From: Alphaproteobacteria bacterium
GTDB lineage: Bacteria; Pseudomonadota; Alphaproteobacteria; Rickettsiales; UBA1997
NCBI GenBank assembly: GCA_030835905.1
Contig: JAURQX010000035.1
Span: 1 to 51,911 of the forward strand
Reading direction: 5' to 3'
DNA: 51,911 bases
Position 1 is the first letter of the stretch. Each line of letters starts with the position of its first letter. Below the pieces are notes generated by a model. It had not been told where the DNA came from, did not search any database, and was given only the letters and a program-made list of their open reading frames with translations. Position numbers and translations under genes: made by a program. Below, one piece after another: positions 32,669 through 50,478 of the stretch.

Positions 32669-32865
32669 ACTCCCTCTTTGGGGCACTAATTCTTAATAAA
32701 AATCGAATTTCTATTATCGCGCCCCGCCCCTGCGGGGCACTAAACTTAAAAGATCGAATTCTATGTTAGATACACCCCGCCCCTGCGGGGCACTAAACTT
32801 AAAAGATCGAATTCTATGTTAGATACACCCCGCCCCTGCGGGGCACCCCTCTAGAAGAGGGGAAT
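32669..32865. repeat. 53-bp GC-rich tandem repeat before leuS
   Basis: CCCCGCCCCTGCGGGGCAC starts at 32722, 32775 and 32828, exactly 53 bases apart. The units between are identical (ACTAAACTTAAAAGATCGAA and on to GATACAC). A degenerate unit precedes (from about 32669), and the last copy ends in a separate perfect hairpin (CCCCTCT-AGA-AGAGGGG, 32846-32862). Each unit can form a GCCCC/GGGGC stem. GC content is far above the surrounding DNA. It occupies almost the whole rluB-leuS gap. Confidence 0.9.
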
Positions 32866-46315: not shown

Positions 46316-46661
46316 TTGAGAAGTTTCTAGTAAATTTTTAACGAAGATTGCTTCATATTTATTATTTTTAGATATAATTAGATATTTTTTGGATATTTAA
46401 TCCTTAATAAATTATACCAAAATTCACCTTTAATAGCATATTTGGATAAAGGATTTTTAAGGATCAAATTTAAGAGAAAAAACCTTGTGTATCATGATAT
46501 ACAGAAGATTTTTCTTTTGAATTTTAGACTAAAAAGATGAAGCATAAAGTGGGTGTTTTGAGGTTAAAATGGCATAATATTCAAAAATTATCTAGTGCTA
46601 ATTACAATACTTTAAAAAGTTAAATTGAAGGATTTGGCAAAGATAAAAAGAGTCATTTCAG
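46316..46661. other. Gap after fumC: hairpin and possible short peptide, otherwise no gene
   Basis: 346 bases. There is an imperfect hairpin at 46475-46514 (AGAAAAAACCTTGTGTAT paired with ATACAGAAGATTTTTCT) that could be a terminator or operator. ATG 46537 opens a 28-codon frame (MKHKVGVLRLKWHNIQ...) ending at 46623, which I cannot assign and which may be spurious. Nothing else is visible. Confidence 0.4.
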
Positions 46662-47456
46662 TTGGTAAGGGCAGATGTGTTGTTTATCAGATTATTAACA
46701 AATCTTAAATTAGTGAATAAAAATCAAGACTACCCGAATCTACTTAGAGATTTTAAAAAATATTTTTACGGCGAAAATTATGAACATGAAAAAGGTATTT
46801 CAGAAAATACTATAATTAGTCAAATCCATGAAATGAAGAGAAATCACGAGGTGTTTTCTATCTTTAATAATGCAATAAAAGAATCCCAGGAAGAAGAAAA
46901 TTTTAGAGAACTTTTTTCTTCAAATAGATATCTATGGAATATAATTCTTAACGACTATTTTAAGAGCCAGGCTTTATTTATCAGAAGGCTAACCGATAAG
47001 AATGAAAAGTCGGCATCACTAATCTCGATTCTTAATAAGATTCAAAGAAACTTGCATTACGATGAATTAAATACAAAGATTTTTGAGATTTATAAAAATT
47101 CAATAAGCAAAGAGAACTTAAAATATATTGAAAAACTAGCATTAGATATCAAATTTACTAGAATGTTTTCTTGCCAATATATAGAGGACATGAAAGAAAG
47201 ATTAGATTCTAAAGAAATAAATGAAGTTAGAAATTATACAGATAAATATCTTGCCCATGCAGACATAGCGCCAAAAAAAGTTAATCTGAATATTAATAAG
47301 ATTAAAAACTGCCATCAAGTAATTATTGCAACATTTAAATCAATATACTTTCTTCTTTTTGGGGCTGACGGAAGTTTTTTGACAAAGGTTTCTTTGAATA
47401 AAATTGATGTTTTAAAAAATGCAAATAATCCATTTCTTACAAACATGCCTAGATAA
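46662..47456 (+). CDS. AbiU2/HEPN-like protein
   Basis: 264 residues starting at TTG 46662 (GTG 46677 is also possible). The region LWNIILNDYFKSQALFIRRLTDKNEKSASLISILNKIQ (about 91-128) and the segment EVRNYTDKYLAHAD (188-201) match the layout of HEPN AbiU2-type abortive-infection proteins. In these a late R-x4-6-H motif supplies ribonuclease residues. Here the usual Arg before DKYLAH is Thr193, leaving Arg190 nine residues from His199, so activity is uncertain. All-helical otherwise. Assignment is by pattern only. A ~75-bp direct repeat begins 20 bases after its stop. Confidence 0.5.
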   Translation: MVRADVLFIRLLTNLKLVNKNQDYPNLLRDFKKYFYGENYEHEKGISENTIISQIHEMKRNHEVFSIFNNAIKESQEEENFRELFSSNRYLWNIILNDYFKSQALFIRRLTDKNEKSASLISILNKIQRNLHYDELNTKIFEIYKNSISKENLKYIEKLALDIKFTRMFSCQYIEDMKERLDSKEINEVRNYTDKYLAHADIAPKKVNLNINKIKNCHQVIIATFKSIYFLLFGADGSFLTKVSLNKIDVLKNANNPFLTNMPR

Positions 47457-47475
47457 ACTTGGTCAAGAGAAAGAC

Positions 47476-47550
47476 ATGGTGCACTTCGTGCTTGCAAACG
47501 CCTATTTTCTGAACTCGCTAGCGTTTATTAAGTAAAATTACGGCTTTTTT
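47476..47550. repeat. ~75-bp direct repeat, left copy
   Basis: Matches 49891-49964 with about six differences over 75 bases, in the same orientation. The shared core is GCACTTCGTGCTTGCAAACG, followed by CCTATTTTCT and TTAAGTAAAATTAC. It contains a small hairpin (GCAC-TTC-GTGC). The two copies enclose the Fic/cyclase-like pair and both 10-bp arrays. Confidence 0.85.
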
Positions 47551-47572
47551 GTTGACTTTCAAATGTATTTAT

Positions 47573-47602
47573 CTCACACTATCTAACATTATATCACATT
47601 TA
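47573..47602 (+). repeat. Three-unit 10-bp repeat before fic
   Basis: CTCACACTAT, CTAACATTAT, ATCACATTTA: cores CTCACA, CTAACA and ATCACA start at 47573, 47583 and 47593, exactly 10 bases apart. The last core ends 16 bases before the fic ATG, an operator position. The same cores occur on the opposite strand in the array after the second gene. Confidence 0.6.
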
Positions 47603-47613
47603 TATGTTGCATT

Positions 47614-48696
47614 ATGGATTGGAAAGATTTTAGAGTAAATAAAAGGCTAAATTTAAGACCAAATATTATTGAAGAAGTTTATTCTTTAATTGCAAAAATT
47701 GATTCTGTTAAAAATAGCTTTTCTTTAACTAACAATCTTTTACCTCAAACTATTAGTCGCCTTACCTCATCTTTAATTGTAACCTCTGCTGGTGCCTCAA
47801 ATAGAATTGAAGGAAATAAACTAACAGATAATCAGGTTGAGAAGCTTTACAAGAATTTAAATATTCAAAAGTTCAAAACCAGAGACGAACAAGAAGTTGC
47901 TGGATATATAGAGGTTTTACAAGAAATATTAGCTAATTATCAAAATATTAAAATAAGCGAATCTATAATTTTGGGTTTTCATGACCAAATGTTAAAATAT
48001 AGTGAAAAAGATTCTAGACATAAGGGAGTATATAAATTTGGATCAAATCGAGTAGAAGCAAAAGATCATGATGGCAATTTAGTTGGGGTTATTTTTGATC
48101 CAACCCCACCTCATTTAGTTAAAAAGGAAATTCAAGAACTCGTTGAGTGGTATAACTTTTCCAAAAATGAAGGACAAAAACATCCTTTAATTTTAATTGC
48201 TAATTTTATCTTTGAATATTTAGCGATTCATCCTTTTCAAGATGGTAATGGAAGAACCAGCAGATTGTTGACAAATTTAATGCTCTTACAGTCAGGTTAC
48301 AACTTTACCAATATCGTCTCTCATGAAAAACTAATAGAAAACAATAAAGCTGATTATTATTTGGCTTTAAACAAAACCCAAAAAACTTGGAAAACTGAAA
48401 ATGAAGATATTTCGCAGTGGTTATTATTTTTCTTAAAAATTGTTGATGGACAGGCGGAGAAAGCTTTAGGTATTTTAAGAGGAGAAACAATTGAACATTT
48501 GCTATCAGAAAAACAGATAGAATTATGGAATTGGGCTTTGTCATTAGAGAAAAAAGAATTTTCACGAAAAGATGCAATTGAAGCAACAGGATTTCCACCT
48601 AGAACCGTTGAAGCAATAATTAAAAAATTATTTGATCTGAAAAAGTTAGACAGGATTGGTGAAGGTAGAGGAATTAGGTATAGAATATTAAGATGA
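47614..48696 (+). CDS. Fic-domain AMP-transferase with N-terminal inhibitory helix and C-terminal winged helix
   Basis: 360 residues. The N-terminal (S/T)xxxE(G/N) inhibitory motif is SNRIEGN (62-68), then the Fic core with flap FDPTPPHLVKKEI (about 161-173) and a canonical active site HPFQDGNGRTSR (206-217). The C-terminal part (about 300-360: EFSRKDAIEATGFPPRTVEAIIKKL, GEGRGIRYRIL) is a winged-helix domain. This is the common class II, self-inhibited Fic architecture, which adenylylates proteins. All catalytic residues are present. ATGA overlap with the next gene means both are made together. The winged helix could bind the 10-bp repeats nearby. Confidence 0.93.
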   Translation: MDWKDFRVNKRLNLRPNIIEEVYSLIAKIDSVKNSFSLTNNLLPQTISRLTSSLIVTSAGASNRIEGNKLTDNQVEKLYKNLNIQKFKTRDEQEVAGYIEVLQEILANYQNIKISESIILGFHDQMLKYSEKDSRHKGVYKFGSNRVEAKDHDGNLVGVIFDPTPPHLVKKEIQELVEWYNFSKNEGQKHPLILIANFIFEYLAIHPFQDGNGRTSRLLTNLMLLQSGYNFTNIVSHEKLIENNKADYYLALNKTQKTWKTENEDISQWLLFFLKIVDGQAEKALGILRGETIEHLLSEKQIELWNWALSLEKKEFSRKDAIEATGFPPRTVEAIIKKLFDLKKLDRIGEGRGIRYRILR

Positions 48697-49598
48697 TAAA
48701 TATGAGAAAAACAAATTATAAAAACCAAATTTTTCTTAAAAAAACTGAAGAACTTAGCAAAAAATACAAAAAGAAAGTCATTATCTATTTGGATATACTG
48801 GGAATAAAAGATTTTACTTTAAATCAGAATACTTCAGATAATGAATTGTGTGAAGTATATCAAATCTTAAAAAATATAGCAGATAGCTTTTCTAAAGATG
48901 ATCATTTAAAAAAATTTCTGAATTTTAGTGAAGAAGAATATTCCTTAAAAATAGCAACTGAGGATCTAGATTTCTCAATTTCGATTCTAAGTGATTCAAT
49001 CATTATCTCATTTTCTAAGAATTTTTTATTTCTTCTACCTTGGGTTTTAAGAATAACTCGATTTTTACAGATAATATTAATTTTTCATGGATTATTGGCT
49101 AGGGGCGCTGTGACTTGTAATAAAATATATCACACAAAAAATGATACAACAATGCTTTTTGGTAAAGGATTGGTAGAAGCTTACACGCTAGAAAGTAAAG
49201 GTGATGATCCAATTATGCAGATAGAAAATAAATTATGGAATCAGTATAAAAGAATGATGGAGAAAGAAGGAGAACTAGAGTCAATTTTTAAAAAAAATTG
49301 CACCACAAAAGGTGATTTAAAATTTGTAGAACAGGTATTTTTTGCTAGTTCTAAAACAGCATTTATCGAAAAAAAGCCTGAAAACAAAATTTGTTATAGG
49401 CATTTTTATGATCTGGAGCATACTTTGCATCAACTATCTGAAAATAATTTTATAAGAAAATCTGATAGCAATTACTTTTTGTCTATTGTGGATAAAAATA
49501 TTGAAAAATTTCAAAATGATAAAAATATTTTAGGAAAATGGCAGGTAACTAAAAAATTGATTGAATGGGAATTGGATATTTCAAGAAATATTCTCTGA
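48693..49598 (+). CDS. Class III nucleotide-cyclase-like protein of unknown function
   Basis: 301 residues. The pattern is VIIYLDILGIKDF (29-41), LSDSIIISF (99-107), GLLARGAVTCNKIYH (133-147), then LFGKGLVEAYTLES (155-168). It follows the class III adenylate/guanylate cyclase layout: the D-I-x-G-F metal Asp (Asp34), a second Asp in a hairpin (Asp101), R-x-G-I-x-x-G, and G-x-x-V-N-x-A-x-R-L-E. The final Asn and Arg of the classical enzyme are not matched, so catalysis is open. A Pycsar-type pyrimidine cyclase is one possibility. Translation couples to fic by ATGA. The 133-residue tail is helical and unfamiliar. Confidence 0.5.
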   Translation: MINMRKTNYKNQIFLKKTEELSKKYKKKVIIYLDILGIKDFTLNQNTSDNELCEVYQILKNIADSFSKDDHLKKFLNFSEEEYSLKIATEDLDFSISILSDSIIISFSKNFLFLLPWVLRITRFLQIILIFHGLLARGAVTCNKIYHTKNDTTMLFGKGLVEAYTLESKGDDPIMQIENKLWNQYKRMMEKEGELESIFKKNCTTKGDLKFVEQVFFASSKTAFIEKKPENKICYRHFYDLEHTLHQLSENNFIRKSDSNYFLSIVDKNIEKFQNDKNILGKWQVTKKLIEWELDISRNIL

Positions 49599-49712
49599 TC
49601 TCCATTTCGGTCGTCCTTTTTTATACTCAGCAATATCAAGGCTAAATGCCCTGTTATCCTGAATTTTTTGGCAAGATTCTCCAAAAACTCTTAGAAATCT
49701 CCATATTACAAA
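49581..49712 (-). pseudogene. Possible coding remnant (44 codons, no start)
   Basis: Between two stops the minus strand reads WRFLRVFGESCQKIQDNRAF and continues SLDIAEYKKGRPKWRSENIS. It has natural-looking composition but no ATG, GTG or TTG start in a good place. The source family is unknown to me. It may be a remnant of a gene displaced when the Fic module arrived, or chance. Confidence 0.25.
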
Positions 49713-49791
49713 TTAAAAATTTTGAGTATTTCTTCAAAATTTTGTCTCCGCTTTAGAAAAAGATAAAACTGATTAGAAATTCTGAGAGCGG

Positions 49792-49875
49792 GTGAGTAAA
49801 AGGCTTGTGAGTAATGATGAGTAATTGTTAGTAAATGTGAGTAGTTGTGAGTACTCCATAGTAACTCTGAGTACT
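49792..49875 (-). repeat. 10-bp periodic repeat array after the cyclase-like gene
   Basis: (G/T)AGTA cores begin at 49809, 49819, 49829, 49839, 49849, 49859 and 49869, exactly 10 bases apart, with one more at 49794. On the minus strand the unit is TACTCACANT (variants TACTAACAAT, TACTCATCAT). Seven uninterrupted units at one period suggest multi-site binding by one protein on one DNA face. Not a CRISPR: no spacers of useful length. Confidence 0.8.
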
Positions 49876-49890
49876 GGCGGATGGAAAGGG

Positions 49891-49964
49891 ATGGCGCACT
49901 TCGTGCTTGCAAACGCCTATTTTCTAAACTCACTAGCGTTCGTTAAGTAAAATTACAGCTTTTT
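49891..49964. repeat. ~75-bp direct repeat, right copy
   Basis: Second copy of the 47476 repeat, same orientation, about 92% identical. It starts 15 bases after the 10-bp array. Between it and the hairpin at 50002 I see nothing else. Confidence 0.85.
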
Positions 49965-50001: not shown

Positions 50002-50069
50002 CATAAATTATATTTTAGATGTAAACACACGCTTCGCTTAAAGTGTTGACATCTAAAATATAATTTATG
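50002..50069. repeat. Hairpin with 27-bp arms abutting tRNA-Ser 3' end
   Basis: CATAAATTATATTTTAGATG pairs exactly with its complement ending at 50069, and the arm extends to 27 bp with one mismatch around the loop ACGCTTCGCTTAAA. The right arm includes part of the tRNA CCA end. It could be a processing or termination structure for the tRNA, or an inserted palindrome. Confidence 0.85.
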
Positions 50070-50157
50070 GCGGAGAGAAAGGGATTCGAACCCTTGATAC
50101 AGTTACCCGTATACCTTCTTAGCAGGAAGGTGCCTTCAGCCACTCGGCCATCTCTCC
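50068..50157 (-). tRNA. tRNA-Ser (anticodon GCT)
   Basis: Acceptor GGAGAGA/TCTCTCC, long variable arm, anticodon GCT in CTTCCT-GCT-AAGAAGG, T-loop TTCGAAT and encoded CCA (50068-50070). Reads AGC/AGU. About 90 bases, normal for serine tRNAs. Confidence 0.95.
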
Positions 50158-50478
50158 GTAATTTAACTATTTAATCACAAGTTCGCTTTGCTTTTTTCGC
50201 CTAAAGGCTCAAAGTCAAAGCTCACCTCGGGGATTGCGTCGTTTACGCTCCTGATCCCGCTTTTCTTGGAAAAATTATGCGTTTAGGCATAATTTTTTTG
50301 AAGAAAAGCCTCGGCCATCTCTCCGTAATTTAACTATTTAATCACAAGTTCGTTTTGCTTTTTTCGCCTAAAGGCTCAAAGTCAAAGCTCACCTCGGGGA
50401 TTGCGTCGCTTACGCTCCTGATCCCGCTTTTCTTGGAAAAATTATGCGTTTAGGCATAATTTTTTTGAAGAAAAGCCT
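50144..50478. repeat. 167-bp tandem duplication including the 5' end of tRNA-Ser
   Basis: TCGGCCATCTCTCCGTAATT recurs at 50311, 167 bases after 50144, and the units differ at only a few positions (for example GTTCGC/GTTCGT). Each unit holds the first 14 bases of tRNA-Ser and a stem of about 20 bp (50259-50309 and 50426-50476; GCTTTTCTT...GAAGAAAAGC around GTTTA). No gene is visible in it or in 50479-50696. Confidence 0.9.

What the first reader, a model, noticed from the sequence alone, without database searches (positions are those of the whole stretch)
47476..49964. Fic plus nucleotide-cyclase-like gene pair bracketed by matched repeat arrays and direct repeats
Seen: order is 75-bp repeat, 10-bp array, fic, cyclase-like gene (ATGA overlap), inverted 10-bp array, 75-bp repeat. 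The second protein shows a class III cyclase layout (Asp34, Asp101) but lacks the usual Asn/Arg. Known: Fic proteins with the SxxxEGN helix are self-inhibited until released, and some bacterial cyclases (Pycsar) signal phage infection. Inference: a compact mobile two-gene system in which a nucleotide made or sensed by the second protein controls Fic. I know of no described system with this pairing.
Basis: partly seen in the sequence, partly recalled or inferred. Interest (0 to 1): 0.8.

Follow-up and report, generated by a model that had tools for sequence, protein, structure and literature searches.

The report
Fic toxin with borrowed cyclase-like gene
A self-restrained Fic toxin gene of a Rickettsiales-type bacterium sits, under its own conserved control site, directly in front of an uncharacterised cyclase-shaped gene; the pair looks like a recent local combination rather than a fixed two-gene system, but the cyclase-shaped family is interesting because it turns up beside several different phage-defence genes.

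Summary
In detail: 81-bp direct repeats (73 of 81 identical), both 10-bp arrays, the Fic gene and the overlapping second gene are there. The second protein (301 aa) has a predicted class III cyclase fold (AlphaFold pTM 0.76; best structural match guanylate cyclase, Z 13.5). It keeps both metal Asp (D34, D101) but has Val and Thr where the catalytic Asn and Arg should be. Fic lies near this cyclase-like family in 2 of 41 genomic and plasmid loci (the window and one Megaera plasmid), 0 of 43 viral and 0 of 12 further loci of the order; 1 of 19 other Fic-orthologue loci has it. In a relative with a 92% identical Fic, other genes fill the slot. The left array is the fic promoter/operator (16 of 18 upstream regions, the window's included), so not an element end; the right array belongs to a conserved noncoding stretch beside tRNA-Ser. 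Best reading: a Sofic-like, self-inhibited, self-regulated Fic that recently gained a portable, probably non-canonical cyclase-like accessory gene at an exchange site. The family (phrog_23933) also occurs beside AbiE, Shango, Dsr1, type I RM and ParA-like genes, the more interesting lead.

The parts
46577..46693 (+). Remnant resembling the 3' end of a second fic gene that stands downstream of fic in the relative L022
   Evidence: blastn 80% to L022 6524-6639, inside the second fic ORF there
46662..47456 (+). HEPN AbiU2-like ORF (264 aa, TTG start as listed), neighbour, not shown to be part of the unit
   Evidence: Pfam PF18734 2.6e-8, 34 bits against a cut-off of 26.8
47469..47549 (+). Left copy of the 81-bp direct repeat
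47552..47605 (+). fic promoter/operator: TTGACT at 47552, then 10-bp-phased CTCACA-like units at 47573, 47583, 47593
   Evidence: at least 2 phased units in 16 of 18 usable upstream regions of Fic orthologues, this one included
47614..48696 (+). fic, 360 aa, Sofic-like, self-inhibition motif, C-terminal winged-HTH-like part
   Evidence: Pfam PF02661, PADLOC SoFic 9.3e-45; PDB matches, best 8uqu 4.6e-28, SoFic entries about 3e-11
47797..47817 (+). codons of the inhibitory motif SNRIEGN (S62-N68)
48229..48255 (+). codons of the Fic active-site motif HPFQDGNGR (H206-R214)
   Evidence: translation
48508..48687 (+). codons of the C-terminal winged-HTH-like part (about residues 299-358)
   Evidence: only confident part of the Fic model, block means 79-89 over residues 301-360, helix-strand-helix-helix-strand-strand; weak HTH-type profile hits (Pfam 0.1; PADLOC Csa3 0.016)
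48693..49598 (+). class III cyclase-like gene, 301 aa (P0001)
   Evidence: phrog_23933 1e-20; AlphaFold model; Foldseek and VIA-align matches to cyclases
48792..48794 (+). codon of D34, first metal Asp
   Evidence: D in 61 of 61 ungapped rows of 64
48993..48995 (+). codon of D101, second metal Asp
   Evidence: D in 62 of 62 ungapped rows of 64
49599..49874 (+). conserved noncoding right-end stretch
   Evidence: window 49598-49864 is 79% identical to L022 7710-7976; part of it also beside tRNA-Ser(GCT) in G013
49805..49873 (-). right 10-bp array (CTCACA-like units on the minus strand)
49875..49892 (-). partial copy of a tRNA-Ser 3' end (16 of 18 to 50068-50085)
   Evidence: family D11; in L022 the array abuts an intact tRNA-Ser(TGA)
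49884..49964 (+). right copy of the 81-bp direct repeat
50068..50157 (-). tRNA-Ser(GCT)
   Evidence: ARAGORN

Best explanation
The core is a Sofic-like Fic toxin with its own conserved operator, most likely an abortive-infection or toxin-antitoxin-type defence gene. In the resting cell the SNRIEGN helix blocks the ATP site (inferred from the class), and the protein's C-terminal winged HTH represses its promoter by binding the 10-bp-phased CTCACATAAT-type sites (inferred). When repression and inhibition are relieved, for example by a phage, it would AMPylate cell targets and stop growth (inferred from Sofic). The cyclase-like gene is a recent passenger put directly behind fic, in a slot that other genes fill in a relative, and is co-transcribed (inferred from the 4-bp overlap). 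Its predicted fold is class III cyclase-like and it keeps the two metal Asp but not Asn/Arg, so it is unlikely to make cAMP or cGMP by the usual chemistry. I take it for a portable, nucleotide-binding accessory that tunes or triggers whichever defence toxin it lands beside, here Fic. Predicted fold, residues, operator conservation and slot exchange are shown by computation; the regulation of Fic by the second protein is inferred and weakly supported.
For: Fold: 21-sequence model, pLDDT 76.4, pTM 0.76; Foldseek 44 PDB matches at E <= 1e-3 and all 50 rows listed are cyclases, incl. the Anabaena uridylate cyclase 8jsz; VIA-align Z 13.5, 175 residues, rmsd 3.9; the family profile aligns to a true cyclase domain in L018; one of 21 members hits Pfam Guanylate_cyc at 0.0036. 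Residues: D 61/61 and 62/62, Arg137 61/62, Asn position Asn in 6/62, Arg position Arg in 6 of 64 rows. Fic: PADLOC SoFic 9.3e-45, PDB SoFic entries, winged-HTH-like C-terminus. Operator: at least 3 phased units in 12 of 18 and at least 2 in 16 of 18 upstream regions, the window's included, at most 2 of 300 shuffles in each of the 16. Slot exchange: L022 Fic 92% identical, followed by a second fic and a 350-aa gene instead, then the same right-end stretch. Defence company of the family: AbiEii, Dsr1, SngB/SngC of Shango, HsdR/HsdM, SocA/Panacea.
Against: No experiment. The Fic link recurs only once outside the window, and there the order is reversed with a 407-bp gap. The commonest immediate partner that I recognised was a ParA-like gene (5 loci), not a known defence toxin, and two members sit among what look by eye like prophage tail genes (L094, L194), so a phage or plasmid function is possible; the defence company was noted from selected partners without a control. 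A sequence profile of the family against the PDB gave no significant cyclase (best 1yk9 at E 0.8; top hit an unrelated repeat protein at 8e-4). The model is weak over residues 191-260 (block means 40-62; 34 residues below 50). The nearest relative L022 has only a degenerate operator by my criterion (1 unit) and L025 none. NCBIfam's SoFic equivalog is far below cut-off (69 of 550 bits). The Fic model as a whole is poor (pLDDT 47.9).
Confidence: 0.45

Rival explanations
1. Bystander: the cyclase-like gene is simply another cargo gene in an exchange hot spot near tRNA-Ser and works independently of Fic.
For: 2 of 41, 0 of 43, 0 of 12 loci with Fic; different genes in the same slot in L022; accessory company including an AbiU2-like HEPN gene and a fic remnant.
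Against: The 4-bp stop/start overlap suggests co-expression; the closest plasmid relative of the Fic among 72,556 plasmid records (66.7%) is itself 407 bp from a member of the same family, a coincidence that is hard to expect, though both kinds of gene are accessory.
Confidence: 0.33
2. Dedicated two-gene signalling system: the second protein makes or senses a nucleotide upon infection and this switches Fic on, like Pycsar with a Fic effector.
For: Predicted cyclase fold and both metal Asp; overlapping genes; one second pairing in Ca. Megaera polyxenophila.
Against: No conserved link; catalytic Asn and Arg absent; 18 of 19 other Fic-orthologue loci lack it; no PADLOC match for the second protein.
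Confidence: 0.1
3. Antitoxin-like partner: the protein binds and restrains Fic directly, as the small downstream AS1 does for E. coli Sofic, with the cyclase fold used only as scaffold.
For: Position directly downstream of a Sofic-like Fic, as AS1 (PMC12249575, abstract and passages); catalytically inactive cNMP cyclase domains are described in conflict systems (PMC7159879, passages).
Against: 18 of 19 other Fic-orthologue loci do without it; AS1 is 47 aa, this is 301; both metal Asp are invariant in the ungapped rows, which argues for nucleotide or metal binding.
Confidence: 0.12
4. Transposon-like element: the two arrays are its inverted ends and the 81-bp repeats its target duplication.
For: The arrays share a phased motif in opposite orientation; direct repeats flank the stretch that is shared with L022 at another site.
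Against: The left array is the promoter/operator of Fic orthologues in 16 of 18 upstream regions in differing surroundings; no ORF of transposase or integrase size in the unit; the right-end stretch has one copy in the assembly.
Confidence: 0.05

Closest known systems
Sofic / SoFic Fic defence protein
   Same: Fic motif, SxxxEGN-type inhibitory motif, winged-HTH-like C-terminus, PADLOC SoFic profile 9.3e-45
   Different: NCBIfam SoFic equivalog cut-off not reached; conserved CTCACATAAT-type operator seen here; neighbour is cyclase-like, not the 47-aa AS1 of E. coli Sofic (PMC12249575)
Class III nucleotidyl cyclases (adenylate/guanylate cyclases)
   Same: Predicted fold (Z up to 13.5), both metal Asp, RGg and FG-A-E stretches in register with RIG and FGQPVNLAAR
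   Different: Catalytic Asn and Arg positions are not conserved; no Pfam cyclase match for P0001
Pycsar (PycC with PycTM or PycTIR)
   Same: PycC also has class III motifs with two metal Asp (PMC11224242, passages); Foldseek lists the Anabaena uridylate cyclase 8jsz
   Different: No PycC profile match for P0001; the adjacent gene is Fic
phrog_23933 and phrog_21097 (phage protein families of unknown function)
   Same: P0001 matches both (1e-20 and 9e-12)
   Different: No function is given for either; P0001 is a divergent member (local identities mostly 20-35%)

Membership tests
Sofic-type Fic | Fic active-site motif HPFx[DE]GN[GK]R | tested here: met
   HPFQDGNGR, H206-R214
Sofic-type Fic | Inhibitory motif SxxxE[GN]N | tested here: met
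Sofic-type Fic | PADLOC SoFic profile | tested here: met
   9.3e-45 over 29-353
Sofic-type Fic | NCBIfam SoFic equivalog cut-off (550 bits) | tested here: not met
   69 bits; so called Sofic-like, not filed as SoFic
Sofic-type Fic | AMPylation, toxicity, phage protection | not testable with these tools
   bench work
Class III cyclase superfamily (fold) | Class III catalytic-domain fold | tested here: met
   predicted model and fold searches; the sequence profile against PDB was not significant for cyclases
Class III cyclase superfamily (fold) | Two metal-binding Asp | tested here: met
   D34, D101
Catalytic class III cyclases | Transition-state Asn and Arg (recalled) | tested here: not met
   V161 and T165; Asn in 6 of 62 ungapped rows, Arg in 6 of 64 rows
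Pycsar | PycC profile match | tested here: not met
   0 PADLOC families at E <= 1 for P0001; a relative, P0003, 0.03
Pycsar | PycTM or PycTIR effector beside it | tested here: inconclusive
   only the Fic and the AbiU2-like neighbour were scanned against PADLOC, neither matched
Dedicated Fic-cyclase two-gene system | Conserved gene pairing | tested here: not met
   2 of 41, 0 of 43, 0 of 12; 1 of 19 from the Fic side
tRNA-associated integrative element | Duplicated tRNA 3' end at the boundary | tested here: inconclusive
   18-nt partial copy at 49875-49892, 16 of 18; no matching copy at a left boundary noticed
tRNA-associated integrative element | Integrase in the unit | tested here: not met
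   fic and the cyclase-like gene are the only ORFs of 130 aa or more on 47469-49964

The most novel reading that the evidence does not exclude
phrog_23933-type proteins are an unrecognised, widespread class of non-canonical class III cyclase homologues that act as interchangeable nucleotide-dependent sensors or triggers for unrelated defence effectors (Fic, AbiE, Shango, Dsr1, type I RM, ParA-like), moving between them as a module; the window shows one such capture by a Sofic-like Fic.
Probability: 0.25. Interest if true: 0.75.

Novelty: new variant of a known kind. Interest (0 to 1): 0.45.

Why it matters
If the cyclase-like family really tunes unrelated defence toxins, it would be a shared regulatory layer of bacterial immunity that the family libraries used here do not name: P0001 has no Pfam, NCBIfam or PADLOC match of weight, and of 21 members scanned only one touches Pfam Guanylate_cyc, at 0.0036. 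Whether such proteins make, bind or sense nucleotides becomes directly testable with small two-gene loci such as this one. Separately, the conserved CTCACATAAT-type operator offers a simple handle on how Sofic-like Fic toxins keep themselves off.

Tried and rejected
Rejected: the left array as a transposon end (it is the fic operator); Pycsar membership on the cyclase side; a conserved Fic-cyclase pair; the 81-bp repeat as a dispersed genomic repeat (two copies found). Left open: why the right-end stretch is conserved (all six frames were printed; no clean shared gene seen by eye) and whether the right array is a second binding-site cluster for the same regulator (in L022 it is weaker, two units by my criterion).

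Led nowhere: relatives of P0001 in genome contigs; P0001 and P0005 in phages; alignment A1 and P0003 in viral contigs; literature on the pair or the family (among the titles and abstract starts listed I saw no Fic-plus-cyclase system, and one search listed no paper); BFVD fold search (no match at E <= 1e-3, best 2.6e-3); profile against PDB sequences (no significant cyclase); structure of the whole Fic (poor except the C-terminus).

Limits of the counts. In the Acinetobacter plasmid that I read (L007) the homologous gene is broken; the Acinetobacter records were left out of the counts. Of 27 plasmid records with a match I fetched 14 plus the Hymenobacter one. Output was cut in the middle, so the Fic counts are taken from the compact rerun. 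The 43 viral loci lie on 39 contigs and give 21 nonredundant proteins. In one search, 2 of 20 upstream regions (L090, L174) could not be used, which leaves 18, the window included. Flanks were not always full: both sides of 3 kb or more in 33 of 41, 18 of 43 and 7 of 12 cyclase-like loci; on the Fic side too several orthologues lie near a contig end (for example L025, L089, L090), so a partner could be missed. A Leisingera locus has an annotated Fic 3.8 kb away, cut by the end of the stretch, not counted.
Full report
Observation. The listed features were found at the stated places. The direct repeat is 81 nt with 73 identical and was found only twice in the own assembly of 1.25 Mb in 57 contigs, 87.8% complete. 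Fic (47614-48696) and the second ORF (48693-49598) overlap by ATGA; a start 9 nt downstream is also possible. A 10-bp-phased CTCACA motif (at most 1 mismatch) gives exactly one run of three on each strand of the 51.9-kb window, at the two arrays; 60 dinucleotide shuffles gave none.

Organism. The relative with 92% Fic identity is titled an uncultured Rickettsiales bacterium (L022), and its contig appears, by length and match, as genome G014 of the window's own family; so the window most likely comes from a Rickettsiales-type MAG (inference).

The second protein. P0001 has no Pfam, NCBIfam or PADLOC match of weight but belongs to phrog_23933 (1e-20) and phrog_21097 (9e-12), both of unknown function. 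Relatives were found on plasmids (27 records with P0005 as query), in 11 of 289 genomes of the class (own genome and one true cyclase, L018, included), 14 of 398 of the phylum (own included), 15 of 343 of the order (own included) and in 43 viral-contig loci on 39 contigs, 21 nonredundant proteins. The family profile aligns to the true class III cyclase domain of L018 with both metal Asp in register: FiDiLGF with FTDIVNF, SDs with GDG, RGg with RIG, and GpAlirAYelE with GQPVNLAARIM. In 64 aligned rows Asp34 is Asp in 61 of 61 and Asp101 in 62 of 62 ungapped rows, Arg137 is Arg in 61 of 62, while the Asn position is Asn in 6 of 62 and the Arg position is Arg in 6 of 64; P0001 has Val161 and Thr165. 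The AlphaFold model from 21 sequences has pLDDT 76.4 and pTM 0.76, with the strand-helix order of the class III core (order recalled); residues 191-260 are weak. Foldseek gives 392 matches, 44 at E <= 1e-3; the 50 rows listed are all cyclases and include the uridylate cyclase 8jsz. TM-scores normalised by the query are 0.32-0.41 in those rows, as the matches cover about residues 19-218 of 301. VIA-align gives Z 13.5 (rmsd 3.9, 175 residues) for soluble guanylate cyclase and 13.3 for the adenylyl cyclase C2 domain. Against this, a sequence profile of the same 21 proteins against the PDB found no significant cyclase (1yk9 at E 0.8), and BFVD gave nothing at E <= 1e-3. The fold is thus supported by prediction; usual cyclase chemistry is not.

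The Fic protein. It has the Fic motif and SNRIEGN, a PADLOC SoFic match and PDB matches, best 8uqu (4.6e-28) and SoFic entries at about 3e-11 over 162-350. The model is poor as a whole (pLDDT 47.9), but residues 301-360 are confident and show a winged-HTH order. Of 20 Fic-orthologue loci, 18 gave a usable upstream region, the window's included: TTGACT followed by CTCACATAAT-type units at 10-bp intervals recurs, at least three phased units in 12 and at least two in 16; L022 has one by this criterion and L025 none. This makes the left array the promoter/operator of fic; that Fic itself binds it is inference from its HTH.

Link between the two genes. From the cyclase-like side, Fic was found by motif and by blastp in 2 of 41 genomic and plasmid loci, 0 of 43 viral loci and 0 of 12 further order loci. 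The second case is a plasmid of Ca. Megaera polyxenophila (L146), where the cyclase-like gene lies 407 bp upstream of a Fic 66% identical to P0002. That Fic is also the closest plasmid relative of P0002, the only one of 68 records at 60% or more, while its cyclase-like neighbour is only 26% identical to P0001. This recurrence is the best evidence for a functional link and keeps it open. From the Fic side, 1 of 19 other orthologue loci (the same plasmid) has the gene. In L022/G014 the Fic is followed by a second fic and a 350-aa gene, then by the same noncoding right end. The blastn homology ends 10 bp before the end of fic and resumes at the last base of the cyclase-like stop codon, as expected if genes are exchanged in this slot.

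Surroundings. The right end (49599-49874) recurs, 79%, directly against tRNA-Ser(TGA) in L022 and in part near tRNA-Ser(GCT) in G013; in the window it ends in an 18-nt partial copy of a tRNA-Ser 3' end, followed by the right 81-bp repeat and tRNA-Ser(GCT). An AbiU2-like HEPN gene and a fic remnant lie upstream. This looks like a tRNA-proximal exchange hot spot, but no integrase-sized ORF lies in the unit, so the means of movement is open.

Company of the family. Immediate partners that I recognised: AbiEii (Leisingera, Ruegeria, Roseovarius plasmids; annotated, one confirmed by profile), Dsr1, genes matching SngB and SngC of Shango (L239), HsdR- and HsdM-like genes with the cyclase-like gene between them (L120), a SocA/Panacea gene (L198), ParA-like genes in five loci (L115, L125, L199, L202, L217; two confirmed by Pfam) and, by eye, prophage tail genes (L094, L194). 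These are selected partners, not a census with controls, so an excess of defence genes is a lead and not a result.

Mechanism. Shown by computation: predicted fold, residues, operator conservation, slot exchange, lack of a fixed pair. Inferred: self-inhibition and self-repression of Fic, growth arrest by AMPylation as for Sofic (PMC12249575, abstract and passages), and an accessory nucleotide-binding role of the second protein. Catalytically inactive cNMP cyclase domains have been noted in other conflict systems (PMC7159879, passages), and PycC shares the two Asp (PMC11224242, passages).

Verdict. A new variant of a known kind: a Sofic-like Fic with a sporadically acquired cyclase-like gene. 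Interest 0.45, mainly for the family and the operator.

Noticed in passing
50143-50476: Tandem duplication of 167 bp (99% identical) that includes a copy of the first bases of the tRNA-Ser(GCT) gene.
   Followed up: no
32722-32846: Perfect 53-bp tandem repeat, 2.4 copies, with a G+C-rich part.
   Followed up: no
46662-47456: HEPN AbiU2-like ORF (listed with a TTG start) directly upstream of the unit, overlapping a remnant of a second fic gene.
   Followed up: partly
L022 4001-5080: The 92% identical Fic has HPFQDSNGR where the window has HPFQDGNGR, a difference in the active-site motif.
   Followed up: no
L115, L125, L199, L202, L217: Recurrent ParA-like gene directly upstream of the cyclase-like gene, in genomes and viral contigs, overlapping or within a few bases; possibly a system of its own.
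   Followed up: partly
L239 4924-9381: Cyclase-like gene 16 bp behind genes matching SngB and SngC of the Shango defence system.
   Followed up: partly
L138, L139, L150: Cyclase-like gene 13 bp behind AbiEii on three roseobacter plasmids; in the third an annotated transposase gene overlaps its end.
   Followed up: partly
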